The notes under the pieces: model-generated
Told to the model about the DNA's origin: nothing
The model's input: the letters and a program-made list of their open reading frames with translations, nothing else
Databases searched by the model: none
Position numbers and translations under genes: made by a program
In this document: positions 40,830 through 63,239 of the stretch, piece after piece
Position numbering within the stretch: position 1 is the stretch's first letter
Layout of the letters: the number at the start of each line of letters is the position of its first letter
From: Zasmidium citrigriseum
Lineage: Eukaryota > Ascomycota > Dothideomycetes > Mycosphaerellales > Mycosphaerellaceae
DNA length: 64,000 nucleotides
Direction of reading: 5' to 3'
NCBI GenBank assembly: GCA_002786025.1
Contig: NHNW01000001.1
Coordinates: 248,001 to 312,000 of the forward strand

Positions 40830-43800
40830 TATATATTATATACTAGTACTAGTATTAAGAAAAGTAAGAGCCCTAAACGTAGCTCTAAGCGTATAAAAAG
40901 CGTAGTTTTCGAATCGTAGAAGTATATATACTATAGAGGAACTAAAAAAACGCGTATTTTAGCGCGTTTAGGGCGCCTATATAGTACTATACGGCTAGGT
41001 AGTCGTCGACGGTCGACGTACGTCTCTAGGAGGTTACCTTCGTTAAGAGTAATAGGCTCTCCCTTTACCCTTAGTATTAGAGGAAGGGAAGAAAGTATAT
41101 CCTTACTAGAAGAAAAGGTAGCTAGTAAGAGGGTAGGAGCTAAGCTCTAAAAGAGGAAGGTACGCTAGGTAATATACTGTTTTAACGTTATTACTTAGTC
41201 GTTTTAGTTTCTAGTATACTATATAGAGCTATTTACGCCGCTAGCTATAGCTACTAACTACGGGTTAGGTTATATTCGTAGGAAAGCTCTACTATATATA
41301 AGGTATACTCCTAACTACGTAAGAGCGCCTACTATTTTTCTAAGGCCTTACTAAGAGGATCTTTAAGGCTAAGGATTAAGTCTAGGGCCCCTATAGCGCT
41401 AGAAAGCGCGTACTAAGCGTATTATTCTACCTACTACTTTTACGTTAGCCTAAATATACGTATCCTAAGCGCTAATAGGCGTAGAAAGGGCGCTTTAAGA
41501 GCTTAGCGTAGTAGTAGTAGTTAGTTAGAAGGTAGCCCTTATTAGGGCAATTTCTATAAGCTCTTCGTCCTTACCCTTATATTTATCGAGACTAAAGATC
41601 TTTAATATATACCCTAAACTAGAGGCACTAGTCCTAAATCTAACTAGTAGCAATTCCTTACTTACGTCTACTAACTCTACTTAAATAAAATAGTATATAT
41701 ATAATATACTAGTACTAGGGAAGGTAAGAGCCCTAAACGTACCTCTAAGTATATAAAAAGCGTAGTTTCTAAATCGTAGAAGCTTATATAGTATAAAAGA
41801 ACTAAGAAAACGCGCGAATAAGCGCGTTTAGGGCGCTTATATAGTACTAGGTGGTAACTAGCAGTCGTCTACGTACGTCTAGAGTAGGTTACCGTCGTCG
41901 TCGAGCGTAATAGGCTCTCGCTTCACCCTAGGTATTAGAGAAAGGGAAGAAAGCGTGTCCTTACTAGGAGAAATATTAGGAGGTAGGGAAGAATATCCGA
42001 AAGAGGAAGGTACGCTTAGTAATAATAGTAATAGCTAACGTTATAATATAGTACTTTAGCTTTTAGTAGCTAGTATAGAGCTATTTACGCCGCTAGCTAT
42101 AGCTACTAACTATAGGTAAGCTATATTTATACTTAGTAGATATAGTGTACTATATATATTCTTTAGTAGTTAAGCTAGATCTTACTTCTATATAGCGCTA
42201 TTCTAGGCGTTTTTAGTAAGATTATACGCCCTATATATAATCCTAAGCGTATACGAAGCGTATTAATAGACTCGCTATAGCTATTTTATATATAAAATAC
42301 TATTATAGCGTACAATTAAGCGTAGTAAGCGCGCTTATCTAGGACCTATATACGTAAAGGGGTAGTAGGTAGTAGCTTTTATAGGTGCGATTCCTATTAG
42401 CTCTTCGTCCTTACTATACTCTTCTTATTAAGATTAAGCTCTAAATTAAGGCGAGCTAAGATATATACCCTTAGGAAGGCACTAGTCCTAAAGCGGACTA
42501 GTTGTAATTAAACGCTTACTTACTATTTACGCTTAGAATAAAGTACTATATATAGTACTAATATTAGAAAAGGTAAGAGCTCTAGATACGCTCCTAAGCG
42601 CGTATAAAGCGCAAAATTCTACCCGCGTATCCTATTATAGTTAAAAACTATCTAAGCTAAGCGCTAATAAGCGTAGAAAGGGCGCTTCTAAGGCTTAATC
42701 TAGCGGCCGTAGCTAGTTAGGAAGTAGCGGCTACTAGCTAGACTTATAAGGTCCTTATTTTCGCTCTAGTTAACTCTCTTATTAAAGCTAAGCTCTTAAA
42801 TATATACCCTAGTCTAAGAATCCTAATCCTAATTTAGATTAGCGTTAATTAAACGTCTACCGTCGCTTAAAACAAAGTAGTCTATAGTAATAAACGAGAA
42901 CTAAATTTAGAAAAGTAAGAGCCCTAAACGTACCTCTAAGCGTACGAAAAGCGTAGTTTTCGAATTATAGAAGCTTATATAGTATAGAGGATCTAGGAAA
43001 ACGCGTATTTAAGCGCGTTTAGGGCGCCTATATAGTAATATACGGCTAGGCGGTCGTAACGGGTTATCTACGTACGTCTATAGAAGGTCGCTATCGTCGT
43101 CGAGAGAGATAGGCTCTCTCTTTACCCTTAGTATTAAAGGAAAGGAAGCGATCTTTTACTCGATAGAAGAAAAGATAAGTATACTAGAAGGGCTCCTAAA
43201 TAGGAAGGTACGCTAGGCGGTAATAGGAGGAGTATAACGTTATATATTACCGTATTTAGTTACTAGCGGCTTATATAGAGCTATTCGCGCTACTAGCTAT
43301 AGCTACTAACTATAGGTAAGCGTAGTTAACTTCCTAGAAGATATTACCCCCTTAGTAAGCTAAACGCCTCTTAGTTCGTATTAAGCGTATATTAAGCGCG
43401 TATTCCGTTATATAGTATCGATAGAGGTAGGACCTTACGCTAAAGAAGCGCTTAGGAGGTAGCTTAGGGCGTTTTTAATATTATTAGGGGCGATACTAAG
43501 GCTTCGTTACCTACGTAGTCGCCGAGTTAGCGCGAGCTATTATATACGACGTTATCGCTATCGTCGTTAAGTAGATTAAACTAGCTTCGATAATCTTTAA
43601 TATAAGTTTTAAGGAACGGATACGAAAGGTACTAGTTAGAAATAGGACTAGCGCTCTCGCTTAGCTCGCCTAGCCTTAAAACATATATAGCTATTTATTA
43701 GTACTAATCTTCCGCCTAACTTCCTTTCTTCTACTAGGTCCCTAATAACACCTTAAAGCCGACTACGAGACTACCGCGTCTACGTACGGACTACTATATA

Positions 43801-46800
43801 TACTAGACTTAAAGCCTCCTAACGAAGTAGAAGCCCTAAACACGTTATTTACGTACTAAAAGTATTAAAGTTTAACTTATAGTAGTACTACGGCTTTAAA
43901 ACTACGCTTTCTATACGCTTACGATAGCGTTTAGAGTACTAACTCTAGAAAGAGTATATAGGTAGCTATAGTAAGGTACTATATATAGCTATTACTATAT
44001 ATAGTATATACTAAGTAAGGCTACGAGTAAGCTCTACGTATCGTACCGCTAGCTACGGCTACTAACTACGGTAAAGTAAACTCTACTTAATATACTCTAT
44101 AGATTATATCTATTACTAGCGCGCCCCTAATATTCTCCTAAGCGTATAAGAAGCGTATTACTACTCTTCCTATAATACTACGAGTATAAATCTACGCTTA
44201 CTTTCCGCTTCTAACCGCGTAGAGGGCGTATCTAGGGCTAAGCGTAAGAGTAGTAGTAGTAGTAGAGGCGGAGTATAATAGCGTCCTTATAGAGCTACTA
44301 CCTACTAAGCGTCTATATCTTCTTCGTCCTCGCTCTTATCTATAAAAATAACCTTAGTACTCGAGAAGAAATAATAGTAGATAGATCTAAATTAGGACTA
44401 GCGTAATAAACTTAATCTAGAGATAGTATATAGTATATAGTAAAAAGCTATTATATATATAATAAACGTAAGTAGGAAGAAGAGAAGTAGAAGGTTAGAT
44501 TCTTACTAAATATAGTAGACGACGGCTACTACTAGCCCGCGGATATATTAGATAGTAGATACTATAGCGCCTTTAACGCGCGAAGTAAGTACTAGAGTTA
44601 GTATAAATAAACTCGCTAATAAAGCCTAGTCTAAAAGATACGCTTTCTACGCGCGTAAGTTAACGTATAGAGTACTCGCGCTCTAAGGAGTACTACTATA
44701 GCTATATATATAGACTAGTAAATATCGGTACTATATATAACGCGCCTAAGTTAAGTTTCTAAAAGGCCGTTTTAACGTTAGGTCCTACTAGCTACTCCTA
44801 CTAACTATAGGTAAGTAAAGTCTACTCCGCTAATCCTAGTTCCTAAGTAGTACCTATACGCCCTAAACTATACTCTAGGCGTATAAAAAGCGTATTCTTC
44901 TACTCCTATAAGGATTAAAATCTCCTAGTAAAGTAGAAGCCCTAAACGTATTATATATATACTAAAAATATTTTAGTTTAACTTATAATAGTACTACGGT
45001 TTTGAAAATACGCTTTCTATACGCTTAGGATAGCGTATAGGGTATTAACTCTTAAAAGAGCCCTTAAGTAGCGATAAAAAAGTACTATATATAGCTATTA
45101 CTAGATATAGTAGTTACTATATAAGGCTACGGGTATACTTTACCTACCGCCCTACTAGCTACGGCTACTAACTATAGTAAGGCTAGTTATACCTAATATA
45201 CTCTACTAATTATATCTATTACTAGGGCGCCCCTAACCTTCTCCTAAGCGTACGAGAAGCGTATAGTTATACCCGTACGAGAAAGATAAGTTAAAGTACG
45301 CGCTTTTTATACGCTAAGAAGTTTATTTAGGGCTCTTCTAACTACGTTAAGCGCGTAGTACCGTAGGTAACGCGAGCCGCTATAGACTATCTAGTCTTAA
45401 TCGTCTTCTTCGTCTTCGTTAAAGCTAGATTCGTTACTATAAAACTAAATTAAATATAGGTTAGGAGTAGCTTCTTACTATAGCCGCTAGTATAAACGAA
45501 GCTTAGCGCTAACGATTTACCTACTAACGCTCCCTATATACTACTATATAATAGTACTAATAACGATTTATCTCCCTCTAGCTAATATAACCTCTAGTAC
45601 TCCCTTTATAGACTACTAGCTCTATATATAGACTATTCTTAGTTCCTAAGTAGTACCTCTACGCCCTAGACTATACTCTAAGCGTATAAAAAGCGTATTA
45701 TTCTACTCCTACGAGAAAGACGAGTAGAAGTATACGCTTTTTACACGCTAAGAAGTTTATTTAGGGCTCTTCTAACTACTTTAAGCGCGTAGTACCGTAG
45801 GTAACGCGAGCCGCTATAGACTATCTAGTCTTCGTCTCTATTCTCGTTCTTCGTTAAAGCTAGTTTTATTACTATAAAATTAACTTAAATATAGGTTAGA
45901 GTAGTTTCTTACTATCGCCTCTAGTATAAACGAAGTTTAGCGCTAACATTTTACCCGCTAACGCTCCCTATATACTACTATAAGACTATTTTTACGTCGC
46001 GTCTTACTAGCTACTACTACTAACTATAGATTAGTAAAGTATACCTAGCTAATCCTAGCCCCTAAGTAGTACCTATACGCCCTAAACTATACTCTAAGCG
46101 TATAAAAAGCGTAATCTTCTACTCCTACGAGGTTTAAATTCTCCTAGTAAAGTAGAAGCCCTAAACGCGTTATATACGTACTAAAGATATTTTAGTTTAA
46201 CTTGTAATAGTACTACGGTTTTGAAAATACGCTTTCTATACGCTTAGGATAGCGTATAGGGTATTAACTCTTAAAAGAGCCCTTAAGTAGCGATAATAAA
46301 GTACTATATATAGCTATTACTAGATATAGTAGTTACTATATAAGGCTACGAGTATACTTTACCTACCGCCCTACTAGCTACAGCTACTAACTACGGTAAG
46401 GTAAACTATACCTAATATACTCTATTTATTATATCTATTACTAGAGAGCCTCAAACGTTCTCCTAAGCGTACGTAAAGCGTATAGTTATACCTATACGAG
46501 AAAGATAAGTTAAAGTACGCGCTTTTTATATACTAAGAAGTTTATTTAGGGCTCTTCTAACTATATTAAGCGCGTAGTACCGTAGGTAACGCGGGCCGCT
46601 AAAGACTATCTAGTCTTTACCGTCGTCCTCGTTCTTCGTTAAAGCTAGTTTCTTTACTATAGAATTAGATTAAATATAGGTTAGGAGTAGCTTCTCGCTA
46701 TAGTAGCTAGTATAAACGAAGTTTAGCGTTATCGCTTAACCCGCTAACGCTCCCTATATACTACTATATAATAGTACTAATTACTATTTATCTTCCTCTA

Positions 46801-49800
46801 GCTAATATAACTACTAGTACTCGCTTTATAACCTACTAGCTCTATATACGGACTATCGTAATACTTTACTCTACTACTTTAAAACGAGGTAAGAGCCTTA
46901 AACGTCTTATAAGTAAATAAAGAGTAGTATCTTTTCCCTAGTCCCTATAGCGCGGTTTTGAAAATACGCTTTCTATACGCTTAGGACGGTATATAGCGTA
47001 TTAACTTTAGAAAAAGCACTTAGATAGCTATAATAAAGTACCCTATAAAGCTATTACTAGAGATAGTATATACTATATAAGGCTACGAGTATACTTTACC
47101 TATCGCCCCGCTAGCTACGGCTACTAACTATAGTAAGGGAAACTCTACTTAATACGCTCTATAGATTATATCTATTACTAGCGCGCCCCTAATATTCTCC
47201 TAAGCGTATAAGAAGCGTATTACTACTCTTCCTACGATACTACGAGTGTAAATCTACGCTTACTTTCCGCTTCTAAGCGCGTAGAGGGCGTATCTAGGGC
47301 TAAGCTTAAGGATAGCGGTAGTAGTAGAGGCGGAGTATAATAGCGTCCTCGTAGAGCTACCGCCCGCTAAGCGTTTAGATCGTCTTCGTCTTCGCTATTA
47401 TCTACTAAAACGACCGCGGTACTTAAGAAGAAATAGTAGTAGATAGATCTAAATTAGGACTAGCGTAATAAACCTAATCTAGAGATAGTATATAGTATAT
47501 AGTAAAAAGCTATTATATATACAAGTAACGTAAGTAAGAAGAGGAGAAGTAGAAGGTTAGCTTCTCGCTAAATATAGTAGACGACGGGTACTACTAGCTT
47601 AGCTAGATAGTAGATACTATAGCGCCTTAAACGCGCGAAGTAAGTACTAGAGTTAGTATAAATTAACTTGCTAATAAAGCCTAGTCTAAAAGATACGCTT
47701 TCTACGCGCGTAAGTTAACGTATAGGGCACTCGCGCTTTAAGGAGTACTACTATAGCTATAGATATAGACTAGTAAATATTAGTACTATATATAACGCGC
47801 CTAAATTAAGTTTATAGTAGGCTATTTTAACGTCGAGTCCTACTAGCTACTACTACTAACTATAGGTAAGTAAAGTCTACCCTACTAATTCTAGTTCCTA
47901 GGTAGTACCTATACGCCCTAAACTATACTCTAAGCGCGTAAAAAGCGCATTATTCTACCTATCTTTCTCGTATAGGAAGAAAGATACGCTTTTTATACGC
48001 TAATAAGTTACTTTAGGGCTCTTTAAACTACGTTAAGCGCGTAGTACTATACTTAACGTAAGCTAGTATAGACTATCTAGTCTTTATTGCCGTCCTCGTT
48101 CGTTATTAAAGCTCGTTTCGTTACTATAAAATCAAATTAAATATAGGCTAGGAGTAGTAGCCGCTAGTATAAACGAAGCTTAGCGCTATCGTTTATTCCG
48201 CTTACGCTCCCTATATATAATAGTACTAATAACGATTTCTCTCTCTCTAGCTAGTACGACTACTAGTACTCTCTCTATAAACTACTAGCTCTATATACGG
48301 ACTATCGCGTATACTTTACTCTACTACTTTAAAATAAAGTAAGAGCCTTAAACGTCTTATTAGTAAGTAAAGAGTATTATCCTTTTCCTCGTCCCTATTA
48401 CGCGGTTCTAAAAATACGCTTTCTATACGTATACGATAGCGTATAGGGTATTAAGTCTAGAAATAGCACTTAGGTAGCTATTATAAAGAACTATAGATAG
48501 CTATTACTAGATATAGTATATATAATATAAGGCTATAAGTATACTTTACCTATCGCCTAGCTAGCTACGGTTACTAACTACGGTAAGGTAAACTATACCT
48601 AATATACTCTATTTATTATATCTATTACTAGAGAGCCTCGAACGTTCTCCTAAGTATATAGTAAGCGTATTATTACTCTTCTTACTATACTAGAGTATAA
48701 CCCTACGCTTACTTTACGCTTCTTACTATATAGGGGGCGTATCTAAGGCTAAGTATAGAGCTAGCGGTCGCTAAGGTAGAGCTCTATAGAGTCTTTAGAG
48801 AGATACCGTCCGCTAAGCGCTAAGATCTTCCTTATCTTCGCTATTGTCTACTAGAAGAGCCGCGGTACTTACGAGGAAGTAGTAGATATATCTAAATTAA
48901 GACTAGCGCGGACTAGCGTAATAAGTATAATCTAGAGATAGTATATAGTATACTATAAGAAGCTACTATATATACTATAAACGTAAGTAGGAGGAAGAGA
49001 AGTAGAAGGTTAGATTCTCGCTAAATATAGTAGACGACGAGTGCTACTAGCCTAGCTAGATAGTAGATACTATAGCGCCTTAAACGCGCGAAGTAAGTAC
49101 TAGAGTTAGTATAAATTAACTCGCTAATAAAGCCTAGTCTAAAAGATACGCTTTCTACGCGCGTACGTTAATATATAGGGTACTCGCGCTTTAAGGAGTA
49201 CTACTATAGCTATAGATATAGACTAGTAAATATTAGTACTATATATAACGCGCCTAAATTAAGTTTATAGTAGGCTGTTTTAACGTCGGGTCCTACTAGC
49301 TACTACTACTAACTATAGGTAAGTAAAGTCTACCCCGCTAATTCTAGTTCCTAGGTAGTACCTATACGCCCTAAACTATACTCTAAGCACGTAAAAAGCG
49401 TATTATTCTACCTATCTTTCTCGTACGGGAAGAAAGATACGCTTTTTATACGCTAATAAGTTACTTTAGGGCTCTTTAAACTACGTTAAGCGCGCGTATA
49501 AAGCGCGCCTCTAAGGCTAGGCTAGTAGCTTAATCTATATATTAAGTTATTAAGCTCCTATATCTAGCTACTAAGAGTTAATAACGCCGTACGAATACCG
49601 TTTATAGAATTATAGCCTAGTTAAGCTACGAATAGGCGCTAGTCCGAACGGAGACTAGCGCCCTTTTAGACCTACTTAATCGAGAAGAATAGTACTATAT
49701 ATAATATAAAAGCCCTTTTAAAAGTCGGAATAGCGCGCTAAATAATATCTAGAGCGCGTAGGAAGTATACTTTCTTACTCCTAATACCCTAAAAAGAGCT

Positions 49801-50400
49801 AGGATATAGTTTCACGCGTATAAGAGCGCTTTAAGGGCTCTACTAGGTACTACTATATAAGAAGGGGGCTTATAGCCGTACAGGTTAATTTTGTAGGTAG
49901 TGTTATAAGTATACTCTTCTAAGCTATACTATATAGAAGCTTAATAAATAGTTATAGTATAAGTATCTAGAACGTTCTATTAGCGTAGAAGCTAGTATAA
50001 CGGGTATACTCGCCTCTACGGCGGTACTCTTACTAGTAGATACTATAAAAGCTAACGATCGATCGAGACTCTAACGTTAATATAATTAAGAAGCGTATCG
50101 AGAGCTTAATCGAGAGAGAGTATATAGAGCGGATAGACGATACGCTAATACCTACGTATAAGATTCGAGAGCCTAGTATACCCTAGACCCGCTATAAAGG
50201 TAGTAAATACTAACTCGTTAGAGTATAAGGATTCTAAAGATACGCTTTATACGCGCGTAATACGACGTTAAGGGCGCGTATAAGTACCGCGAGGCGACGC
50301 TTAATAGAGCTACCCCTCGTCTAAAGATACGTCGAGTATAGAGAACTTATATAGAGTAGCGTACTAACTATAGGTACTAACTACGGGTAGGTAAAATCTA
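40830..50400. repeat. Higher-order repeat array (~9.6 kb), RIP-degraded
   Basis: Built from recurring blocks in the same orientation. A ~430-bp block is present at 40,840-41,270, 41,705-42,125 and 42,890-43,320. A ~190-bp block ending in the TACTAACTA motif is near 43,910, 45,000, 46,220, 46,950 and 48,410. A ~790-bp block lies at 44,090-44,880, 47,155-47,940 and 48,600-49,380. The last two copies form a 1.45-kb tandem duplication. Repeated short words include AGCGTATAAAAAGCGTA and its complement. Almost every block ends in a doubled CTACTAACTA motif. I recognise no protein. Confidence 0.7.
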
Positions 50401-52599
50401 TCTACTCGACTATCTTTATTAGTTATACTACCCTAGCGCCTTATTCTCTACTCTAAGCGTATAAAAAGCGTATTATTCGACGTCTAGCGATAAGGGGAGT
50501 ACGAATAAGCGTATACGCTATATATAGAGCTACGTAAAGGGCGCTTCTAAGGCTAGTAACTAATAGGCTAGTAAGGGGGGGGACGGAGGGGTATAAGATA
50601 CTTAGCTAGTAGTATCCTACCTTCGTATACTAAGAGTAGAAAGTTAGTCCTAGAGAGCTAACTTATAATTATAGTTTAGTACTACTATATTAATAGGCGG
50701 AAGACTCGCTAAGTAGGCGTTAAGCCCTAAACCTTATACGAAGCGTATTATTAGCGTATCTTCGCGATTATCGCTATAAGGTAAGTATATATCTATACTT
50801 ACTATACGCTTATAGGTTACTATAGTACTCGGACTACTAGGGTTAGTAGTATCTAGTTTATAATCTATATAGCGGGCTAGCGTATAGGTACTTTAAGTAT
50901 ACTTAATAATATCGAGTTAACTTTATACGCTAGCTATAGGCGCTAACTACGGGGAATAAGGGTTATATTACTTAGATATAGTTAGAGTACCGTATAGGCG
51001 TTAGGTTCGATAGGGTCGCCCCCCCTTCGTCGAGGCGGAATATCTAGTTATTAAATAGTTATTAATAGTTATTTAACGCCTAAGACGCTTAACTAAACTA
51101 ATAGTCTTATAGGTAGTAGACGCTAGGCTAGCGGCTAAGAGCGGCTTAGTAAGTTATATATCTAGAGTAGCTAGCCGTATATAGACTAGTATACCCCTTT
51201 TTATAGCGTTAACGCGACTATTTCTATAAATATCCTATCCTAACCTAGACGCGTTACTACTTATTATTATACGACTAACCTTTTAACTTCTATTATATTA
51301 AGTAGTCTAGCCGATATTAAACGACTTACTAGGGATAGATAAGCGTACTCTACGTCTCCGATTACTACCTCTAAAACTAAAGCCTAAAATACTTCTACCG
51401 TAGAAGCTAATTAGAAGAGTAGCTACGACGCCCTTAATACGGAACCTATATACTAATATTACTCGCCTAGTTAAGATAATAGTAGGGAGAACTTAGGCTC
51501 TATAAGACTTATAAATATACGAGCCTAACTCGTTATACTAATACTAGCTCTAGATACGTATAGAGTCTAGCGTTAACCTACCCTCGTCTTTACGAGAAGA
51601 GTTCCTTAGTATAATACGCGTTAGTACTATTAGATAGTAAGATTAGAGAGTAGAACTCTACTACTATAAAGTCGCCGCCTCGGATTAGGTACGTATACTA
51701 CGCGTTTTAATAATAATATACTAATTTGTCGTAGATCTATAAAGGTCTAATATAGGTTTAAGATAATAGAAGATTAGTATTCCTAGAGCTAGACCTAGTC
51801 TATCTCTCTACTAAAGTTAAGCTTAGTAGGGCGATCGCGAGTATAATATTCTTCGATAGATATATTCCGCTTAGTAAGGCCTTCCTCGACTAGTCTAAGA
51901 TAATAGAGATTATAGGTAGCGATTAGGATATTATAAATAAGCGGTTAGACTCTACGAAAACGAGGAGGGCGGATATTTAGCTTAAGGTAGACGACGATAG
52001 GATAGTCGCGTAATATCGTATCTCTATAAGCTTTAGTATTCGACTATTATCTAGTCTACTACGTAAAACGTCTTCTTTCCCGTAGTTAGTACCTATAGTT
52101 AGTAATATATTATACGCCTTCGTCGAGACTAGTACCTATATCTAGTCTCCGCCTCTTCGCTCGGGCTTCCTTAGTTAGTCGACTCTTCCTCCTAAGACTA
52201 ATCTAAGTCGAGCGTAGCCGTCTACTACCGTTACCGTCGTCTTCGTCGTTACTAATCCCCTCTAATCGAGTTATCGCTTAAACTTCCGTTACCCGCTCCT
52301 ATAGCTTAGTAAGAGCCTACTTAGTATTTAGTAATCTATTAAGACGAGACTCTACTACGAGGCGGTCTATCTCTTCGTCCCGCTAGCGATATCTTACTAT
52401 TATTATTATTAATAATATACGAGGATAGTATACTCGGTTATACTATAACTAGTATCGCGTAATACTAAAATCCCTCTTATATCCTATACCTACTACTAGA
52501 ATAGCTAGAATATCTCGCGCTATACGAGTAATATCTAGATAGTCTCCTTCGATCTTCGCCTACTAAGCTAGAGGGTTACCTCTAACTATAGGGTTATTT
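50401..52599. other. RIP-degraded sequence between array and hAT relic
   Basis: A plus-strand stretch at 51,300-51,560 reads as a low-complexity Ser/Thr-rich peptide if RIP stops are ignored. The sense-oriented GTAGTTAGTA motif occurs at 52,081 and 52,641. The minus strand may hold the C-terminal dimerisation part of the hAT transposase. None can be assigned with confidence. Confidence 0.35.
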
Positions 52600-54800
52600 T
52601 ATAGATACGTGAAATCTAAATATATATATTAGCTAGAGTAATAGTAGTTAGTAGGCGTAGTTAGTAGAGGTCGCTAGCTAGTATAGTAGGGGTCTATATA
52701 CCTTAATCTTGATATAACCGTAGTTATCTAAGTAGAATATCGCGGCTATTCTAAGGAGTCGTTTATAAGTACTCTTTATCGCTTTTATTATTAATACTAT
52801 AGCCTATAGCGAAATTAAAGGACGCGTTACGGGTTTATCGAGCCTACTAGCTATCTATTATAGTAACTATCGAGGAATAGTACTTAAGGAGATTATCTTC
52901 TATAACCTTCTAGTACTACTCTTCTAGGCCGTTAGCTTTAAACGCGGAGCGCTCCTAGATACGAGCCTTTATAGAGGGGTACAAAAGTATAGTAAGGCTA
53001 TAGATATCGCTAAAACGTTCCTAGGTCTTCGAGTAGTATTCGCTTAGCTTGTCCTAGGCCGCCTAGAAGGCGTCGTAGAGTGTTTTCTACTATTAGTACT
53101 ATATCTTCTTCTTTAGCTTACGATTAGCTAACTCTAGTATATTAAAGAGGGTGTTATAGAATCCGAGGACAAGATATAGAGTAGCGCCTTTAGTAGACCT
53201 AATTATAGTCGTTACGTATACGAAGGGCTACGTAAGATCGATAAGGTATTCTAGAATTCTCTACTTAGTTACTAGTAGCTAAAAGTCTACCTTATCCTAT
53301 TTAGTAAAGAAGTTATATAATATATACTATAGACGACTATACTAGACGAGTATATTAGTAGTAGAGCTAAACCTTATCTTAACGTCCTAGATTATACGTA
53401 GCGGCTTTACTTACTTTGTCTTTCTCTAGCGCTTATATACGCGATATAAGGGCTCTATAGACTCGAGCCGCTTCGTCTAGGTAGTTATAAAGGTTTTAAA
53501 CCTTTATAACGAGCTATTAACTTAGATAGCGCCCTTTTGCACCTAAAGACTAATAGTAAGCGAAGTAGCTAAACGTATAATAATATATACTAACTATAGC
53601 TACTAACTACGAGGGCTCGTACCTTCTAGATCGTCCGTCTAATACCCTATAACTTCTTATCCTTCTCGGCTAGCCTAATAGCTAGCCGCTCTACGACCTA
53701 AGCTCTCTAGTTATCTATCTATATCTCTACCTTATTATTTATTAGCGATAGATATAGGTAGGAAAAAAAAGCCTTCTCTACGAGTTATACTATATAGGTA
53801 AAGTAGGGGAATCGTTCTAGTATATTTAGAATATCCTCCTCCTATAATTCGCTGTTTAGGTTTATACTAGCGCTCGTATTTACCTCTTTAGGTAGTATAG
53901 GAGGATAAGAGTTACTCTCGAGTATTTCTAAGGGGCGTTAAATATTATTTAGATAGTCTTCGCGAAACTTCTCGATCGAATCTACGCTATTAAGAATTAG
54001 CCTTAACGCGATTATAAGAGTCGTAGAATAGGCCTATATAGTAGTATAGAGCGTTCCGTTATTAGCGGCGTTATTAGTAGTAAGTAATATTAGCTTCTAG
54101 GAGAGGTCGAACTTGTCTAGTGCTCCTATAAGGTACGTTACGAGATATAAGCCTATATAGGCTCCTTCGATAATAGGGAAATTAAGTATTACTTTATAGT
54201 ATTTCTACTATCTATCGATCTAGTAGGCGCGAATAGTTATAAAGGACGACCGTAACGTACTATAGTACTATCCGTCGAGCGCGATAGATACCTATAGTAT
54301 AGACTATAATATAGCCTTAAGCCGCGTAGTAGAATTAGTAATAAAGGTCTAAATATCGTTTTTAATAGTAGTAGCTAAGTAGAAGGACGCCTCTCTATTA
54401 TAATATAGGTAACTCTATCGAACGACCTTAGACTCGAAGAAGTTTAGTAGTAGACCGTACGCTATAATAACTTAGGCCTAGAGCTTAGCGAAGTCCTCTA
54501 TCTTAAGGTCCTCGTAGCTATCGACGTAGGAACGCTTTCGTTTTTTCTAAAGTTAATCTTTTAGCGAATAGTCTTAAATAATAAATAGATAAGTTAAGAA
54601 CGTAGTTAGTAGCTATAGTTAGCTAGCGTAGTTAGCTTAGATAGTCTATCGACGTAGTTAGTAGCCGTAGTTAGTAGTCGTAGATAGTAATATTAATATA
54701 TATAGATATAAGGCGGTAAGACTTATAGCTTCTACCTTAACGGCTACTATCGCCTTCTTTAACTATTAGGGACCCTTTTTAGCGGAGAGTTCTAGGTAGG
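52600..54800 (-). pseudogene. hAT-superfamily transposase relic
   Basis: Minus-strand translation through RIP stops gives hAT landmarks in order. They are SIALDG followed by stop and YY (catalytic Asp region) at about 54,270; IIEGAYIGLYLVTYLIGALD, then LLTTNNAANNGTLYTTI (second catalytic region) at about 54,090; and RILEYLIDLT, then STKGATLYLVLGFYNTLFNI, then KLSEYYSKT-stop-ERFSDIY near 53,020-53,250. These match the conserved core of fungal hAT transposases, which cut and paste DNA with 8-bp target duplications. The BED finger and terminal repeats were not found. A possible motif-bearing intron lies near 53,580. Confidence 0.7.
54601..54690 (+). repeat. Cluster of four GTAGTTAGTAGC motif copies
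   Basis: Two doublets of the 13-bp motif, in the orientation opposite to most of the island, are separated by about 30 bp (CGTAGTTAGTAGCTATAGTT and CGTAGTTAGTAGCCGTAGTT). This is the densest occurrence in the window, near the 5' end of the hAT relic. Confidence 0.8.
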
Positions 54801-55699
54801 ACTTCGATTCTATAAGGTGTAGAGCTATTATATAGGGTCTATCCCCGAGAGACGGATATTTTAAAGCTTTATCGTAGCCGCGGTAGACTACCTAGGTAGT
54901 ATAGTCGAATATCCTAAGCGCTTCTATAAAGAAGGGCTAAGCGAATAACTTATAGACGCTATTACCCTAGCGGATTAGACTCTTACTCTTACGCTTCTTA
55001 AACTCTTCTAGGTACTTTCTAATAGGAGTCTACTATTATTACTAGAACTATTAGTCGAAGTCGGCGTAGTACTAAGAGTTATATATATAATATTCGCCTA
55101 CGATACTCTAGTATAGTAGCGAGGCTAGTAGTAGTATCGACGTTAGCCTCCGACGCGGCCGTTCTCGGATTAGCGAGCTAGCCTTAAAATTAGAGGAGTC
55201 CTAGCCTCTTAGTCGCTAAGCTATAGACTAGGTAATACGACTACTACTCTAAGGTTCGCGAGAGGGTTAACGAGGTATTATATAGATACTCGAAGACGGA
55301 AAAGCCGATTAGCTAGACGAAGGCTCTATAATAAGAGGAAGAATCGAGATTAAGCGTAGAAATAGAAGTTAAGTAGTAGTACGAAAGAATAGGTTTAGAC
55401 TTTAGGTACCTAGGAAAAATCGTAGGTATTTAATACTTACGCTACGCTAAACGACTCGAGGCGTATAATATCGACTCCCTAGAGCCTACCTCTACCTAAG
55501 ACACTAGTAAAATAAATCGATAGGGTTTACTTCTATATTAAGGAGCGCTACTAAAGCGCTAGGTGTTAGTAATTTTACTAAGAGTAGGCTAGATAGTTAG
55601 CTAGAGAAGATAATTTAACGTATATAAATCGTAAACGGGGCTATAGTAGGAGAGTATAATATATAATTTCTAATTACTCTCTAACTCGCCTACTCGCTA

Positions 55700-57135
55700 T
55701 TAGTCGCGAACTTTAACGTACGCGACGAAATAGAAACCCGCTAACTAAAAGCTAGTACTCTAGGTATAGCGGGGATACTACTATCTAGATAGGCCTCGAA
55801 AATCTTCTATTAGCCTAGCTTATATAATATCCTTATACCTTAAACGCGAGCCTAGGTAGGCTACCTTATAGCGCGGAACAATCGGTTACTATAGCCTATA
55901 ACGGTCTTCGACTATAGCTCGCGGATAGTAAGGTCTTATATAAAGAAGTTATAGAGGACTTTAGCCTCTACGCGATCTTACTAAAGGTTACTATAAAAGC
56001 TATACGCTAGCTAGTCGTAATTAGGTAAAAAGAGCTACGATAGGAAGGCGAATAGGACCTCTCGTCTAGCCTCGACGATAGGCTAGAGCTCCTTATCCTA
56101 TAATCGGATATTCTAGTAGATAGCCCGCTTACTAATATTAAAGATCTTATACGGCTTTAGTAGACGACTAGTAGTAACGAAGTCCTACGAACAAATTAGC
56201 GACTACTAACTATAGCTACTAACTACGCCTACTTACTAAGAGTCGAGTATTAGGAATAAGCCTACGTATTAGCTCTAGTCTATAACGCTAACTAGCGAAG
56301 GTGCCTATAAAAGCGTTATCTAACTAATACCTTATAGCGTAGAGGATCCTAATCTTATCCTAGAAGGATATAATTACTAAATTCTATTGTTTATAGATAG
56401 TAGCTACCTCCGCTATCGTAAGGTTAACCCGAAGTAGTTATTTTAACTTAAAGCGAGCTCGCTCGTATTCCTAAACGAGTTCTACGTTAGATAGCGGCTA
56501 CGCGAGTAGAAAATTCTAAAACAAGTACTCGCTAGGCTACTCGGACCCTTAGGCTATTATATAATTACTATCCTCGTATTTAATATACTCCTAGGCGTTA
56601 TCCTCGAAGTCTTTGTACTCCGCTTTATCGTTAGTAATAGTAGTCGTAGTAGAGAGGCGCTTATCGTAGAGGGTAGTATCGTAGGTTATCTTACTACTAA
56701 TAGTAGCGCTAGTAGGTAGCTAGACCTCTATACCCTTTTCTTTACTATATAAGGTAAGTCTATACTAGCTATAGATACTAACTATAGACTTACTAGAATT
56801 ACTAGCGTACGAGATTAAAGTTTGCCTACTACTATTCTATAAGCGTATTCTAGTCTACTCTAGCTATCTTTACCTACCTAGGAATACTCCTTTTACTAGT
56901 CGACTCTTTATATCTAAGCTAGGCCTCGTTATAGGCTTTTATCCGAAGCCGAAGTGCCTTCTATTCGTCTAAGAGCTTCTCGATCCGCTTCCGCTTACGG
57001 ACTACGTTAAGATCTATCGAGTAGGTATATAGGCTTTTATTATTACTACTAGCCTTTACGCGCTTTATTACGAGTAATTTAGCTATTAACGCTTTACGTT
57101 TCGTTATAGTAAGGATCTTAGGTAATACGTAGACG
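55700..57135 (-). pseudogene. ORF X copy 1: unrecognised coiled-coil, acidic protein
   Basis: Reading through RIP stops: a basic N-terminus (ITKRKALIAKLLVIKRVKAS), a charged coiled-coil stretch (RKRKRIEKLLDE; YNEA, then RYKESTSKRSIPR), and after an intron KEKGIEV and an acidic part (KAEYKDFEDNA). The C-terminal region has RVNLTIAEVATIYKQ and NAFIGTFAS. It has introns near 56,745-56,800 and 56,175-56,235 whose sense strand carries GTAAGT and the GTAGTTAGTA motif. Homologous to 59,250-60,735 in the same orientation. Divergent from the H3-like copy 1. I do not recognise the family and assign no function. Confidence 0.55.
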
Positions 57136-57669
57136 TATACTATAGATTTAAGGATATAGTCCTAATAGGAACCTAAAGAGGTTAATTATAGTAGTAGAAA
57201 GAGATTATAAGGTAGCTTAGCGGAGAAAAGGAGTAATCGAGTAATTTTAATTCGGGATTAGTAAGAATATTAAGGACTAACTAGAAGCGGTATAGCTAGT
57301 ATTAGTGTTTAGTATAATACTAGTCCTAATAGAGTTTATTAAACGAGGTTTACTAACTATAGATCCTAACTACGCCCCTACTAATTAATAAACTATAACT
57401 CGTTTTAGGTAAGACACCCTATATTACGTAAGTTTTCGCTTATATCTTCGAACTCTAATTTAAATTCTTTCCTATACTTAATTCCTCTACTAGGCTAGAT
57501 TCTACTATTTCTCTACCTTAACGAAGAACTACGAGATAAAGTTATATCCTCGAAAGACGTTATATCTAATATATATTATAAGACTTTTACTATAGTATAG
57601 CGCTTAAGCGTAAGTATACTAAGTAGAATAGCGGGTATAGTATATACTAAGATTTAATATAGAGTACTA

Positions 57670-58188
57670 CTAATAAGGCCGAGAAAGCTAGAACTCGTTA
57701 CCGTTTACGTCGTAATAAGGGTACTAAGATAGTCCCTAGCGCTAAAGCTACTACTCGGAGGAAGAGGTACCGCTTTAAGCTAGGTAGTAAGTTACCTATA
57801 GCTAGTAGCCGTAGTTAGTATATTTACCTCTATATAGCTATAGCTCTACGGGAAATCTAGCGATATTAAATACGTACTAAGCTACTTCTACCTCGACTAC
57901 CCTTTTCGCGCCTCGTTCGAGAGGTTATATAGGTAGTAGGTTAGGTACCTACTAGTAGAGAATAGCGCTTCTAAAGCTCTACTATTAGTACGCTTTAAGA
58001 AGCGACGGAAGCCGCTCTTATTAATCTCTTCGAATATAAGTAGCTTAGTTAGAAAGATAGAATAAGGATACTAATATACCTTAGTAACGTAGTTAGCCGC
58101 TATCTATATAAAGCGCGTAACGATTTAATAGAAAGATATATAGTTTATCTGTAGGATAATAGAGGATTGTAGAATTAAGGCCTTTTAG
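57670..58188 (+). pseudogene. Histone H3-like gene, copy 1 (RIP-degraded)
   Basis: Three exons with 51- and 49-bp introns (57,787-57,837 and 58,036-58,084). A basic tail (KARTRYRLRRNKGTK; VPSAKATTRRKRYRFKLG) leads into TIALREI-stop-RY. Then come the alpha-N/alpha-1 (LPFSRLVREV), a loop 1 about five residues longer than canonical H3, alpha-2 (RF-stop-SSTISTL-stop-EATEAALINLFE) and, after intron 2, AAIYIKRVTI and KDI. All stops fall at expected Gln or Met-Gln codons. Intron 1 falls inside the Thr codon of the G-T-V/I-A-L motif (phase 1), exactly as in copy 2. The longer loop 1 and diverged tail point to an H3 variant (CenH3-like) rather than canonical H3, by inference. Confidence 0.8.
57787..57837 (+). 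other. Intron 1 of H3-like copy 1 with doubled 13-bp core
   Basis: GTAAGT donor, TATATAG end, 51 bp. It contains ATAGCTAGTAGCCGTAGTTA, a doublet of the window-wide motif. Same position, phase and length as the intron at 62,500-62,550. Confidence 0.75.
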
Positions 58189-59249
58189 CCCTAGTAATAT
58201 ATAGAATTTATAGGTATACGTAGTATATATTATTCTATTTTAGTATTATATAATCTAGTAATACATTTACGAGATAGTAAATAGACGTAGAGCGTATCTA
58301 GACCCTAGAGACTATAGTACTATTAATATTATAATAGAATCTCGAAGCTTAGATAGAGAAGTAATAATAGTATAAGACGAAATAGATATAGCTTTTATAA
58401 ACTATTCTACGCTTATAAGTTTTAATTTTATAGAAGTTAGCGCTTTAGTTATAGGTTATTACTTATAAGTACTTTAGGATACTAATAAGTAGACTATAGG
58501 TCCTAGGAGCTATTAGTAGATCTTTATAATATCGATTATATAAGGTAGAGCTAAGTTACGGATATTAGATATAGTTAGTATAAATAAGAGAAGTTCTAGG
58601 TTTATTCCTAGAGAGGTCCTATAGTAGATAGCCTTATAGTACTAGGAATATCTAAGGCTAATACTTTTTACTTAAATTTTATATATATATAAGATACTAA
58701 TCGTAAATATAGCTTTAACTAGTAATAGCTAAGCCTATAGATATCCGTTTTTTTTAATTTTTATATTATAAGAAAGCTCTTACTTTCTAGTATAAGTATT
58801 TATTTAAATCTAGCTTATATAAATTAGTTGTATTAATTAAAATCTAAGAAGAGTGTTAAAGTTTGGAATGTAAACCTTATTCTAGAATCGCTCCGCGATT
58901 CTACTATCTAATTAGAAGCTTTCGCGAGGGTCCGAGAATTGCCCGTAACCCTAAGGGTTATAGCTTACCCTAAGTACTAAGAAGCTAACTAATATACTAA
59001 TTTGTCTAGAGTAACTCTATACGTTAATAGTATAGTATAATATTAATATATATATATAACGATAGACTAATAGAAAGTTATAGAGACTATCTATCTTCCT
59101 ATAATCTTAAATCTCGATACTAATATAGTAGTAACGCTCTTTCTATAGAGTACTAGTAATAGTATTAGCTATATTTAAGAATATAGGATTAGTAGCTTAA
59201 CTCTATTATATATTCCCTATCTTAACGCTTAATTATCGTATCTTATGTT
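58189..59249. other. RIP-degraded spacer between the two ORF X/H3-like units
   Basis: No protein is recognised. It includes a short perfect hairpin around 58,890 (AGAATCGC/GCGATTCT with a 3-base loop) and a patch near 58,850-58,930 that keeps some CA/TG. Confidence 0.4.
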
Positions 59250-60735
59250 CGCTAATTCTATAACGTTCTAGGCGCCCCGAATTTTAAAGTACCTATAATA
59301 GAGGATACTCGTATACTAGCTCTTAACTTCTTAGGTATAACGAACTTACTATAGTTTATTAATCCCTTAAATATAGCCTAACTACCTATATTATAGAGAG
59401 TCCTTATACTCTTCGAGAGGAAGCGATACATATACCTCGTCTTATAATAGCTACGATTTCTATAGCTAGTAGCGATCTTCTTCTAAAGCTCTAGAATAGT
59501 AAGAGGCTTAGAGAAGTAGTCGAAGAGGAACTCTACCTTCTTCTTACTCTACTAAAGGTTACCGTAGAATCCGTACGCTTCCTAGTTATAGTCTAGAGGA
59601 ATAAGCTAGCCTAGATAGGCGAGTCTAACCTCTTTACCTACTTAAAGGATACCGTTAAGCTCCTTAGACTAGACTCGAATATTCCGATATATAGCTCGCT
59701 CGCTAGGCGTAAAGATCTTATCTAGCGTAGAAAGCTAACTAGTAGCGATAAACCTCTAGGATTATATTAGTAAGTACTAACTATAGGTACTAACTACGGG
59801 GGTATACCTTTAGAATTACTCGCGGTACTAACCGACGAAGAGCGTCCTTCTTTCGACGCTAGCTAATAAGGGTACTACTAAACTCCCGCTTCGTCTAAGA
59901 TTTAATACTAAGTAGGATATTTCTTTTTATTATAAAGCTTTATATATTATTCTACTATTTCTTATAAAGGGCCCTAACTTAGGTAAAGGCGAGGTTAACG
60001 TTAAGTATATACTAAGATTTAAGCTTCTCTTAGCGCTCGGTAGCGTCGATATTAGCTTCTTCTTAGGCGGAGAGTAGCTATACTATTAGAAACTCCCTAA
60101 AAAGCTCTTCTAATAGCTATTTAGAACTATAGGCCGTTATACGATTACCCTCTATATATAGCTTATACTCCTATTTAACATTATCGTAGTCCTTATAGTC
60201 GCTATCGTTATTTACGACTTTAGTTCTAGTTAAGAGCGTCTCGTTACGTAGAGTAGTATTAAAAGTACTCTTCGCGGATACTATAGCGCTAGCTAGTAGC
60301 TATAGCTCGGTACCCTTCTCCTTACTATAAATTATTAGTATTTACTAACTACGTCTACTAACTACGGTCTTACTAATACTTAATACGCTCTAGATTAAAG
60401 TTAGCCCGCTACAACTCTATAAGCTTAATTTTGTCCGCGCTCTTTATTACTTACTAGCTAGGAATATCTCGCTTACCCCTAGAGTTCTTATATCTTCCCT
60501 AAGCCTTATTATAGGCTCTTATAAGATTCCGCTACGCTAACTGCTCTTCTAATAGCTTCGCAATTCTATTCTACTCGCGTACTATACTATAGCCTATCGA
60601 AAGTATCTCTAAGCTCTCGTCGTCGCTATTAGCCTTTACGCGCTTTACGTCGAGCGACTTAGTAGTAGTAGCTTTGCGCTTCGCTATAATAGAGGTAGAG
60701 GTGTTTAGGCGGCCTAACGATAGGTATTTAGTAGC
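59250..60735 (-). pseudogene. ORF X copy 2: unrecognised coiled-coil, acidic protein
   Basis: Homolog of 55,700-57,135. Matching segments in order: AKRKATTTKSLDVKRVKANS, REQNRIAKLLEEQ-like coiled coil, RAYNKA then RYKNSRGKRDIPS, RANFNLER, an intron, KEKGTEL, and SDYKDYDNVK. The intron before KEKG is at the same position as in copy 1, and its sense strand starts GTAAGACCGTAGTTAGTAG. The divergence between copies exceeds what RIP transitions alone would give. Function unknown. Confidence 0.55.
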
Positions 60736-62393
60736 CGTAAGTATAGGAATACGATAGTAGTAGTAATTAAGGGCGTATAGATAAGCGAAGGCGAGAACGG
60801 AAGACGAGTAATAGTAAGGAAGAGGGTATACGAGTTTAGAGTAAACTTAGAGTAGATAAGAGGAAGAAAGTAAGATAGTAGTTATATAATAATAGTTACT
60901 AGGGGTAACGGTAAGATCCGACGTAGAGTAAGGAAGGTACGACCTTCCTTTAAGATAAGAATATTAGAGTTACTTATAAATTAATCTTTAGACGCGTAGT
61001 TAGCTACTATAGTTAGTATTACCCTAGCTTCCTCGTAAATTAGGTGTTCTGGAAGTTTATACTATTTATAGTATAGCGTACGTTTTAGTAATATTTTAAG
61101 CCGCGGATCTTTAGAATATCTCCTTTTCTCTTTTCCCTCTACCCTACTATACTCTTTCGTTCCCTAACGAGCCTATTCTACTACTTAGATACTCTATTAA
61201 CCCTAAGTACTAGTCTAGACGGTTCCCTTCCTCCTTTAAACCCTCCCTTACTATCTACCTATAAAAGTATAGTATCTATAAATACTAAAGCCGAAATAGT
61301 ATAGTCTACGTAGTACGAAGATAGTCTATAGGATTAAAATAACGATATTTAAGACGACTAGGCTAATATAGGTACTACTAATATTAAGGGGGAAAAGAGT
61401 AGGACTTAGGATAGCTAATCTAAAGGTTCTTCCTTAATACTAGTATCTCGGCGAGGTCGTCGATCTAATATAAAGTCTCCTATTATACTAAAGAGAGTAG
61501 GAAAACGTATTAAAGTAATAGCCGCTAAGTCTAGTCGTCCGTATAGATCGTTACGCTCTAGACTCGTAGGAAAGGTTCCCTAAAAAGAGACGCTAAAGAA
61601 TAAACTAAAGCGGAAAGGGAAAAGCCGTATAGGGATAGTAGTATTATAGGAAATAAAGAAGTATTAGAAGGGAACTAAGCTACTAATCCGTAAGACGCCT
61701 TTCTAGCGACTAGTTTAGGAGATCGCTCTTACTTTTTATATAGGACTACGATTCTAAAGCTAGGCGATTCAAGCGCTATAGGAAGCCGCTAAGGCGTTTC
61801 TAGTAAACGAACTAGAAATATCGAACCTCCTAGCTATCTATACGAAACGGGTAACGATTTAAGTAAAGGATATATAATTAGTACGGAAATTTAGGGAGTA
61901 TTATATAATTTAGCGGTAGTACGATATACTAACTACGGATAATAACTACAGTCCTTTAAATAATAACGACTATATCTTTATTACGTATATTACCCTATAT
62001 TAATATTCTAGCGCGCCTTCCTAACTAATAGTAAAGGTTACCGCGGCGACTAGATAACGTTACAGTTACTAAAATTTACTCCGTTTACTACTACTACCTC
62101 GCGCGCCCTTCCTCTCGACGTCTATATACTATTACTTCTTCGTATCGCCGCCTCTTCGTATTACTACTTCTTCGTATCGCCGCTTCTTCGTATTACTACT
62201 TCTTCGTATCGCCGCTTATTCGTATCGCCGCGTCCTTATTACTACTTTACGTTAATACTATATAACGCTTACTAACGCTCGCGCGTCTACCTTACTCTTA
62301 TTATAGTACTAGTATATATACTAAGCTTAAGATAGTAAATACTTTAATCGCTAATATTTTAAATAGACTATAGCGTAGAGAGCTACTTACTAT
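60736..62393. other. Divergent spacer between ORF X copy 2 and H3-like copy 2
   Basis: About 1.65 kb, compared with about 0.5 kb in unit 1. It holds a motif doublet near 61,000, another near 61,925 and a ~33-bp minisatellite at 62,115-62,240. It may contain an insertion, but no frame is recognised. Confidence 0.4.
62115..62240. repeat. ~33-bp minisatellite
   Basis: Three to four units alternate ATTACTACTTCTTCGTATCG with CCGCTTCTTCGT-type halves. It sits in the presumed promoter of H3-like copy 2. Confidence 0.85.
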
Positions 62394-62908
62394 AAGGTAC
62401 GTTAGACTAGCCTTAGGCGTAAGACTACTAGCGGTAAGTCTATAAGCGGTAAGACCGTTATTTAGCCTACTAGGAAGAAGTATCGCTATAAGCTAGGTAG
62501 TAAGTAACCCGTAGTTAGTAGCCGTAGTTAGTAAGACTAATATATTCTAGCGGTAGCTCTACGCGAGATTCGGAAGTACTAGAAGGAGTACTAGCTACTT
62601 CTTCGTAAGCTTCTATTTATACGTCTTTACTAAGAGATTACGTATAATATAGGTACACCTCTAGGTAGTAGGGAGTAGCGCTTTCAAGCCTCTACTATTT
62701 AGGCTCTTTAAGAGATAACTAAGGCGGCTATAGTTAACCTAATAGAGCGTATATTATACCTTTATAGTTTTAATATTATATACTAACCTAATCTAGTTAC
62801 TAACCTCGCCGCTATCTACGCTAAGCGTATTACTATCTAGTAGAAGGATATATAACTCGTTCGGCGAATTATAGAAAGCGTTAGCTATAATACCTTCTAC
62901 TTACCTTA
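62394..62908 (+). pseudogene. Histone H3-like gene, copy 2 (RIP-degraded, best preserved)
   Basis: Exons 62,394-62,499, 62,551-62,748 and 62,797-62,908 with introns of 51 and 48 bp. The tail resembles an H3 tail (KVR-stop-TSLRRKTTSGK, then SISGK). Then RKKYRYKLG, intron, TVALREIRKY, LLLRKLL, alpha-2 after a lengthened loop 1 (GTPLGSRE-stop-RFQAST, ITKAAIVNLIE), intron, TNLAAIYAKRITI, two stops, KDI-stop-LVRRIIES. This follows the histone fold from alpha-N to the C-terminus with no gap. Loop 1 has about 13 residues between the REI/QEI and RFQ motifs against 8 in canonical H3. Splice phases (1 and 1) match copy 1. Stops replace expected Gln and Met-Gln or Trp codons, as RIP would cause. Confidence 0.85.
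62500..62550 (+). other. Intron 1 of H3-like copy 2 with doubled 13-bp core
   Basis: GTAAGT donor, CTAAT branch-like site, TTCTAG acceptor, 51 bp. The middle is CCGTAGTTAGTAGCCGTAGT followed by TAGTA, the clearest doublet of the motif. Confidence 0.85.
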
Positions 62909-63239
62909 AACTACTAGAGGAAAGCTAGTAGTAGCTTTATTATCTAGAAATTAGCCTATATACGAGTATTAGGGCGTTTTAGACAATACCCCTATTTTAA
63001 GAGCTTTTAGCGTTCGTGTTTATAGAGTATAAACACTATAGAATAATACGCGTAGCTACGTATTATAATATAAATCTACTATTTTATACTATTTAACCTA
63101 CTCCGTAAATCGTAGTTAGCACCCGTAGCTAGTCCTAAGGCGTTATTACTAGTTAATTTACGTATATCTTCTACTCTTACCGTCTAATTACGCTATTTCT
63201 ATGTTTTATATTTTTTGAAATATTAAAATTTCTAAGCTA
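62909..63239. other. RIP-degraded sequence 3' of H3-like copy 2
   Basis: One motif doublet is present at 63,110-63,140. No protein is recognised. Confidence 0.4.

What the first reader, a model, noticed from the sequence alone, without database searches (positions are those of the whole stretch)
57670..62908. Two RIP-degraded histone H3-variant genes inside a repeat island
Seen: copies at 57,670-58,188 and 62,394-62,908 translate, through RIP stops, to a full histone fold (ALREIRKY; LPFSRLVREV; RFQAST; AKRITI; LVRRI) with two introns at identical positions and phases. Known: fungal genomes hold few H3-family genes, and CenH3 differs from H3 by a longer loop 1 and a diverged tail. Here loop 1 is ~13 versus 8 residues. 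Inference: an H3 variant, perhaps CenH3-derived, was amplified or carried by a repeat unit and then silenced. A mobile unit encoding its own nucleosome protein could influence the chromatin of its insertion site. I know of no described fungal transposon that does this.
Basis: partly seen in the sequence, partly recalled or inferred. Interest (0 to 1): 0.92.

Follow-up and report, generated by a model that had tools for sequence, protein, structure and literature searches.

The report
Jumping genes carrying own histone genes
The sequence holds three mutated histone H3-like genes in the wreck of a fungal jumping gene; such elements have been reported before, but here the histone genes look like long-kept parts of the element, which would mean some jumping genes make their own DNA-packaging proteins.

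Summary
A and C share two introns in position and phase. The genome (probably Mycosphaerellaceae) holds at least 38 such copies in several families. Family F1 is a 9-kb hAT transposon: inverted repeats, exact 8-bp target duplications in 2 of 2 elements checked, hAT transposase. CenH3 origin is not supported, though not excluded. New here: (1) a second histone gene with two conserved introns in F1, F4 and the window, which bears on the published retrocopy claim; (2) between families, transversions favour third codon positions (19 of 28 pairs at p<0.05), while copies within a family differ almost only by transitions, so the proteins were probably constrained while carried; (3) family-specific 9-12-bp iterons in non-coding DNA, including introns, in the five units examined. 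The layout resembles Arabidopsis VANDAL/VANC anti-silencing. Function is inferred, not shown.

The parts
39900..62600 (.). AT-rich unit marked by a 12-13-bp iteron TACTAACTAYRG, often in tandem pairs 13 bp apart
   Evidence: 31 exact copies against 0.27 expected, all between 40,112 and 62,533; 37 with a looser motif, 10 of 36 neighbour distances are 13 bp; 5 of the 6 exact tandem pairs found in the genome lie here
52437..54525 (-). hAT transposase remnant
   Evidence: protein-level matches to the F1 and F4 transposases, 31-51% identity, best E 4e-22
55682..57250 (-). X1, degraded paralogue of X2, unknown
   Evidence: 37% over 548 residues to X2, E 4e-37; no Pfam match; no codon-phase signal in the 408-bp stretch tested
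57670..58172 (+). H3L-A, H3-like pseudogene (exons 57670-57786, 57838-58035, 58085-58172)
57787..57837 (+). intron 1 of H3L-A, holds two iterons
58036..58084 (+). intron 2 of H3L-A (loop 2)
59253..60887 (-). X2, degraded paralogue of X1
61433..61898 (+).
62394..62900 (+). H3L-C, H3-like pseudogene (exons 62394-62499, 62551-62748, 62797-62900)
62500..62550 (+). intron 1 of H3L-C, holds two iterons
62749..62796 (+). intron 2 of H3L-C (loop 2), 48 nt

Best explanation
A, B and C are RIP-killed remnants of genes carried by large hAT-superfamily DNA transposons. These elements encode a hAT transposase and H3-like histones; in F1, F4 and the window there is a pair: H3L-1 without introns and H3L-2 with two introns. 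The genes derive from a canonical-type H3 (likely, not certain) and were kept under protein-level selection while the element families diverged; each family then amplified and was silenced by RIP. Mechanism committed to: the element uses its own H3 variants, with an element-encoded factor that reads the family-specific iterons in its non-coding DNA, to build chromatin on itself that resists silencing. Shown: hAT association, gene pair, shared introns, third-position bias between families, iterons. Inferred: expression, deposition, iteron binding, anti-silencing. Identity about 0.9; constraint while carried about 0.65; this mechanism about 0.25-0.3.
For: 38 of 49 Histone hits in the genome carry two or more TAA/TAG stops (a lower bound). 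F1: inverted repeats (17 of 22 bases) and 8-bp duplications CTTCTACT and GAGAGGAC on both sides of 2 of 2 elements checked, 9,056 and 8,950 bp; hAT dimerisation domain 0.8 kb from H3L-1. 3 of the 11 genome hits of that domain lie within 7 kb of an H3-like copy. Transposase pieces also in F4, F2 and the window. H3L-2 with a phase-1 loop-2 intron in F1 (52 nt), F4 (52), A (49), C (48), and a phase-1 intron 1 of 51 nt in all four; host H3 has no loop-2 intron. Transversion excess at third positions: F1-F5 p 0.0003, F4-F5 0.0002, F1-F4 0.002, F2-F3 0.0003; within families 0 to 2 transversions; the transposase shows the same pattern, 25/15/47. Iterons.
Against: No convincing inverted-repeat/TSD pair encloses A-C, so the window unit is assigned by content. 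The window hAT points away from the histone genes, and A-C have no close DNA copies elsewhere. 9 of 28 H3L pairs miss p 0.05 in the codon-position test, all of them pairs with C, F2 or F3, and pairs are not independent. The F1/F4/F5 clade is 100/97 unmasked but only 87/88 with RIP-alterable codons masked. H3L-2 was not found in the 5 of 7 F2 and 2 of 2 F3 loci searched. A hAT piece met nothing at 1e-6 in public proteins. Iteron words were picked after looking; in a de novo scan 3 of 12 H3L segments did not exceed their shuffles and 4 of 13 controls did; one window word with up to 1 mismatch is also found at 32 places outside the window, about the reversed-pattern background of 31. No expression or binding evidence exists here.
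Confidence: 0.7

Rival explanations
1. Passive transduplication, as published: a host H3 was captured once by a hAT, hitchhiked without function and decayed by RIP.
For: Published reading for Mycosphaerellaceae (PMC6710886); every element copy of which I read sequence carries stops; intron 1 of A and C lies within 3 nt of a host H3 intron, in the same phase.
Against: Third-position transversion excess between families, similar in form to the transposase; a loop-2 intron absent from host H3 and a gene pair shared by F1, F4 and the window.
Confidence: 0.2
2. Independent late captures of different host H3 genes by different elements; the constraint is that of the host genes before capture.
For: H3L-1 families are very divergent; B is close to host H3 at positions 1-2 (Tv 12/9/43); in the RIP-masked 12-row set the H3-like genes are not one clade.
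Against: One clade at 97/90 in the unmasked 8-row set and not rejected when masked, p-AU 0.41; F1/F4/F5 one clade 100/97 unmasked, 87/88 masked; F2 and F3 share similar termini; the loop-2 intron is absent from host H3.
Confidence: 0.15
3. CenH3-derived histones that could seed centromere-like chromatin.
For: Longer loop 1 in A, C, F1, F4 and an EAAEAFLV-like helix 2 in several; RIP-masked A and C beside CenH3 at 82/74; CenH3 plus all H3L not rejected, p-AU 0.13 in both sets; CenH3 plus F1, F4, F5 not rejected, p-AU 0.145 and 0.36.
Against: CenH3 clade 97/81 unmasked and 98/97 masked excludes all 12 H3L rows; H3+H3L against Cen 100/98 unmasked, 92/76 masked; B, F2, F3 have H3-length loops; H3-type tail of F1 H3L-2; intron 1 lies near a host H3 intron, and host CenH3 has none at that place.
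Confidence: 0.08

Closest known systems
H3-carrying hAT family of Pseudocercospora fijiensis, Cercospora zeae-maydis and others (Dhillon 2019, PMC6710886)
   Same: hAT, 8-bp TSD, TIRs, about 9.5 kb there and 9 kb in F1 here, one or two H3-like copies per element, all RIP-inactivated, probably the same fungal family; their second copy differs by a 16-residue (48-nt) insertion, the length of intron 2 of C
   Different: They infer an intronless retrocopy and inactive cargo; here H3L-2 has two introns and the histones show third-position bias between families. Their carrier has DUF659 and no dimerisation domain; F1 the reverse. Iterons are not mentioned in the sections I read
H3L hAT element of Pyrenophora tritici-repentis (Manning 2013, PMC3538342)
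   Same: hAT transposase plus an ORF of unknown function plus an H3-like gene that fits neither H3 nor CenH3
   Different: 5.6-kb and 2.3-kb forms, one H3L, 26 nearly identical copies of which two have frameshifts, ESTs reported
Repeat family R25 of Stagonospora nodorum (Hane and Oliver 2010, PMC3017866)
   Same: RIP-degraded repeat with an H3 match
   Different: classified there as from a presumably endogenous gene region
VANDAL21 and VANC21 anti-silencing (PMC5735166)
   Same: short motifs in tandem repeats in introns, intergenic and terminal non-coding DNA, differing between related element families
   Different: plant element (MULE type, recalled) with a dedicated binding protein; no histone gene mentioned in the passages seen

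Membership tests
hAT superfamily | 8-bp target site duplication and terminal inverted repeats | tested here: met
   F1: 2 of 2 elements checked. Window unit itself: none found.
hAT superfamily | transposase with hAT C-terminal dimerisation domain | tested here: met
   F1 over cut-off; window only through homology to the F1/F4 transposases
Mycosphaerellaceae H3-carrying hAT (PMC6710886) | H3-like gene(s) inside the element | tested here: met
   F1 between its ends
Mycosphaerellaceae H3-carrying hAT (PMC6710886) | DUF659 in the carrier, as in P. fijiensis | tested here: not met
   none in the 7.8 kb of F1 scanned; 0 of 7 genome hits lie near an H3-like copy
Mycosphaerellaceae H3-carrying hAT (PMC6710886) | H3 copies lack introns (retrocopy) | tested here: not met
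   H3L-1 intronless, but H3L-2 has two introns in F1, F4, A and C
Mycosphaerellaceae H3-carrying hAT (PMC6710886) | DNA similarity to the published consensus | not testable with these tools
CenH3 | groups with CenH3 in a tree | tested here: inconclusive
   outside a supported Cen clade, but a tie is not rejected and one masked set placed A and C weakly with CenH3
VANDAL/VANC-type anti-silencing | family-specific tandem motifs in non-coding DNA | tested here: met
   not clear of shuffles in every segment of a de novo scan
VANDAL/VANC-type anti-silencing | element-encoded protein binding the motif and removing silent marks | not testable with these tools
   no candidate identified

The most novel reading that the evidence does not exclude
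A lineage of fungal hAT transposons encodes its own pair of H3 variants as a functional part of the element and tags its whole length, even the introns of its genes, with family-specific iterons: a self-chromatinising, VANDAL-like anti-silencing transposon.
Probability: 0.25. Interest if true: 0.88.

Novelty: new variant of a known kind. Interest (0 to 1): 0.62.

Why it matters
In Mycosphaerellaceae, transposon-borne H3 genes have been read as captured cargo that RIP then killed. Codon-level bias between element families, a conserved two-intron gene in a pair, and element-wide iterons instead suggest that a mobile element has long kept nucleosome proteins for its own use. That sharpens Manning et al.'s open question (do these histones change chromatin?) and offers a possible fungal counterpart to plant anti-silencing systems.

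Tried and rejected
No convincing inverted-repeat/TSD pair was found around A-C (one weak AT-rich pair, 51,045-60,460, cuts across X2 and leaves B and C out). DNA searches of the window pieces found no copies of A-C elsewhere; the one match outside the window, on C111, is not a histone. Public protein searches: F1 H3L-1 met only 34 assorted H3 proteins, a mixed profile gave 7,991 hits of which the best 120 are listed, H3 and CenH3, and the hAT piece found nothing. Pfam found no domain in the minus-strand frames with X1/X2 or in 39-49 kb. X was not found in the other families by a two-sequence profile, though X1 had a weak match in F4 (E 2.6e-4). Loop-1 length as a CenH3 marker was rejected: it is 9 to 15 residues among the element histones. 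The de novo scan for iterons is a weak test; I rest on the motif counts.

Odds changed on recheck: 'constraint while carried' from 0.8 to 0.65 and overall confidence from 0.8 to 0.7, because the F1/F4/F5 clade weakens to 87/88 in the masked tree and all nine failing pairs involve C, F2 or F3; the two rival odds were lowered to make the set coherent.

Literature searches. Papers seen: PMC6710886 (abstract, background, results, part 1 of 2 of the discussion), PMC3538342 (passages, and part 1 of 2 of the transduplication section), PMC3017866 (passages), PMC5735166 (passages), PMC10398659 (abstract and outline only). In what I read I saw no mention of iterons or of an intron-bearing second histone in these fungal elements; supplements were not seen.
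Full report
What is there. The forward frame through 54,501-64,000, stops read through, matches the Pfam Histone family at E 1.1e-49 with four stretches. It holds three genes: A (57,670-58,172), B (61,433-61,898) and C (62,394-62,900). A and C have two introns each: 51 and 49 nt in A, 51 and 48 nt in C. Leaving them out makes both genes colinear with H3. Intron 1 splits the codon next to the one split in a host H3 intron (L001), in the same phase, a 3-nt offset. Intron 2, in loop 2, is absent from host H3, whose last 92 residues are one exon. Loop 1 is five residues longer than in H3 in A and C, but not in B.

How many, and where. The genome held for the window (44.4 Mb, 148 contigs) has 49 Histone matches; 38 carry two or more TAA/TAG stops by my count of the list, a lower bound. 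The host also has canonical H3 (L001), CenH3 (L003) and an intact diverged H3 (L002). The core of host CenH3 is 93% identical to Zasmidium cellare, 91% to Neohortaea acidophila and 89% to Cercospora, Zymoseptoria and Ramularia (best 120 of 7,991 listed), so Mycosphaerellaceae is probable and the genus unknown. Of the 38 degraded copies I saw 30: long stretches around 20, short ones around 7 and the 3 of the window. By DNA similarity the 20 form families F1 (8 loci), F2 (7), F3 (2) and F4 (3); by protein similarity the short loci fall to F3 (4), F4 (1), F1 (1) and a divergent F5 (1).

The carrier. F1 has sharp ends. For two elements I had both ends, and both have exact 8-bp duplications (CTTCTACT; GAGAGGAC) and inverted repeats (17 of 22 bases in the one compared); lengths 9,056 and 8,950 bp. 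A hAT dimerisation domain lies 0.8 kb from H3L-1. Of 11 genome hits of that domain, 3 lie within 7 kb of an H3-like copy: C120 (F1), and C133 and C70 (F3 copies). DUF659, which Dhillon et al. found in their carrier, was not found in the 7.8 kb of F1 scanned, and 0 of its 7 genome hits lie near an H3-like copy. Transposase pieces are also in F4, at the edge of F2 loci and in the window at 52,437-54,525 on the minus strand. In F1 and F4 the transposase and H3L-1 are on one strand; in F2 and the window they point apart. I found no convincing inverted-repeat/TSD pair enclosing A-C, and A-C have no close DNA copies elsewhere, so the window unit is an old, low-copy relative assigned by gene content.

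A second histone gene. Inside F1, after H3L-1, lies a second gene that starts MARIKRPTAQAKALAAKAPRRxLSTKA, an H3-type tail, and carries both introns (51 and 52 nt) at the A/C positions. F4 has it too, inverted: introns of 51 and 52 nt, both phase 1 in one continuous frame; its intron 2 is at the same codon as in A, C and F1, its intron 1 aligns to within one residue by eye. I call the intronless gene H3L-1 and this one H3L-2; the window has H3L-1 (B) and H3L-2 (A, C). It was not found in 5 of 7 F2 and 2 of 2 F3 loci searched; F5 is known only from its H3L-1. Dhillon et al. describe one or two H3 copies per element in P. fijiensis, the second with a 16-residue insertion, and conclude that a transcript or retrocopy was captured. 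Sixteen residues are 48 nt, exactly intron 2 of C. I suggest, without having tested their sequence, that their insertion is this intron.

Origin. CenH3 proteins form a clade that excludes all 12 H3L rows, 97/81 with stops masked and 98/97 with every RIP-alterable codon masked. With 8 H3L rows, H3 plus H3L against CenH3 has 100/98 unmasked and 92/76 masked; H3L is one clade at 97/90 unmasked (90/93 with 12 rows), and is not one clade but not rejected when masked (p-AU 0.41). Against this reading: CenH3 plus all H3L is not rejected (p-AU 0.13 in both sets), nor CenH3 plus F1, F4, F5 (0.145; 0.36), and in the masked set A and C joined CenH3 at 82/74. With about 110 columns and long branches the origin is probable, not settled.

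Constraint. RIP makes transitions only, so transversions show what happened otherwise. Within families there are almost none in the histone gene (F1, 4 copies: 0; F2, 3 copies: 2; F3, 3 copies: 0; F4, 2 copies: 1), while transitions are many and roughly even over codon positions in F1 (84/78/66). Between families, on DNA alignments not guided by protein, transversions favour third positions: F1-F5 16/15/37, F4-F5 15/5/29, F1-F4 17/10/30, F2-F3 17/10/34, B-host H3 12/9/43. 19 of 28 H3L pairs reach p 0.05; the 9 that do not all involve C, F2 or F3; pairs are not independent. The transposase shows the same pattern (F1-F4 25/15/47). The X1-X2 paralogues of the window do not (24/19/22), but their frame is not established, so they are a loose control. 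F1, F4 and F5 are one H3L clade (100/97 unmasked, 87/88 masked), F1 and F4 share transposase and gene pair, and F2 and F3 have similar ends, so the constraint most simply acted while the genes were carried.

Iterons. TACTAACTAYRG occurs 31 times in the window against 0.27 expected, only between 40,112 and 62,533; of 36 neighbour distances of the looser motif 10 are 13 bp, and 5 of the 6 exact tandem pairs in the genome are here. A single 14-base word with one mismatch allowed is not exclusive: 13 of 45 places are in the window and 32 elsewhere, about the 31 of the reversed control. The other families have their own words: F1 GTAGCTAGC (10 exact, 0.40 in shuffles), F2 CTACTACGG (10, 0.53), F4 TACTAGCTATA (16, 0.50), F3 GACTAGTACG (4, 0.03). 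The commonest neighbour distance is 13 bp in F1 (7 of 31) and F4 (9 of 28), 10-11 in F2 (5 of 21) and 9-12 in F3 (6 of 13). They sit in introns: 4 of 11 in the two H3L-2 introns of F1 (circular-shift p 0.003), 7 of 11 if two proposed transposase introns are added, 4 of 37 in the A and C introns (p 0.001), none by the strict motif in 1,276 nt of window histone exons or 926 nt of F1 histone exons; allowing one mismatch, one falls in F1 H3L-1. In F4 one exact copy lies in intron 2 and one with a mismatch in intron 1 of H3L-2, none in the histone exons. The words were chosen after looking. A blind 9-mer scan on 3.2-4.7-kb segments gave weaker contrast: 9 of 12 H3L segments exceeded their shuffles, three of these nine with another word than the iteron, and 3 did not; 4 of 13 controls exceeded theirs, two of which (L030, L034) carry the F3 word and may belong to F3.

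Reading. The known part: these are H3-carrying hAT elements (PMC3538342, PMC6710886). The new part is that the histones look like kept genes of the element. The layout of family-specific tandem motifs in introns, intergenic and terminal non-coding DNA is that reported for VANDAL21, where VANC21 binds a 9-bp motif and DNA methylation is lost (PMC5735166). I infer that these hAT elements use iterons and their own H3 variants to keep their chromatin open. No binding protein is identified, and no expression or deposition is shown; I put this mechanism at 0.25 to 0.3.

Noticed in passing
window 27,593-37,625: A 10,033-bp unit with 25-bp inverted ends (22 of 25 bases) and an 8-bp near-duplication (GTAGCTGC/GTAGCTAC), hAT-like, without a detectable histone gene; a second possible left end at 25,269.
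   Followed up: partly
L002 (G000:C69, about 454,895-455,365): An unRIPped, strongly diverged H3 gene with an intron near that of canonical H3; in the unmasked tree it groups with H3, on a long branch, not with the element histones.
   Followed up: partly
window 40,764-43,344 and 43,770-49,494: Two arrays of repeated units of about 0.7-1.5 kb inside the iteron-marked unit, with no Pfam match up to 49,000 in any frame.
   Followed up: partly
window 62,080-62,320: Short tandem repeat of TTCGTATCGCCGC-like units between B and C.
   Followed up: no
window 63,635-63,836: A 77-bp word repeated at 125-bp spacing at the right edge of the AT-rich island.
   Followed up: no
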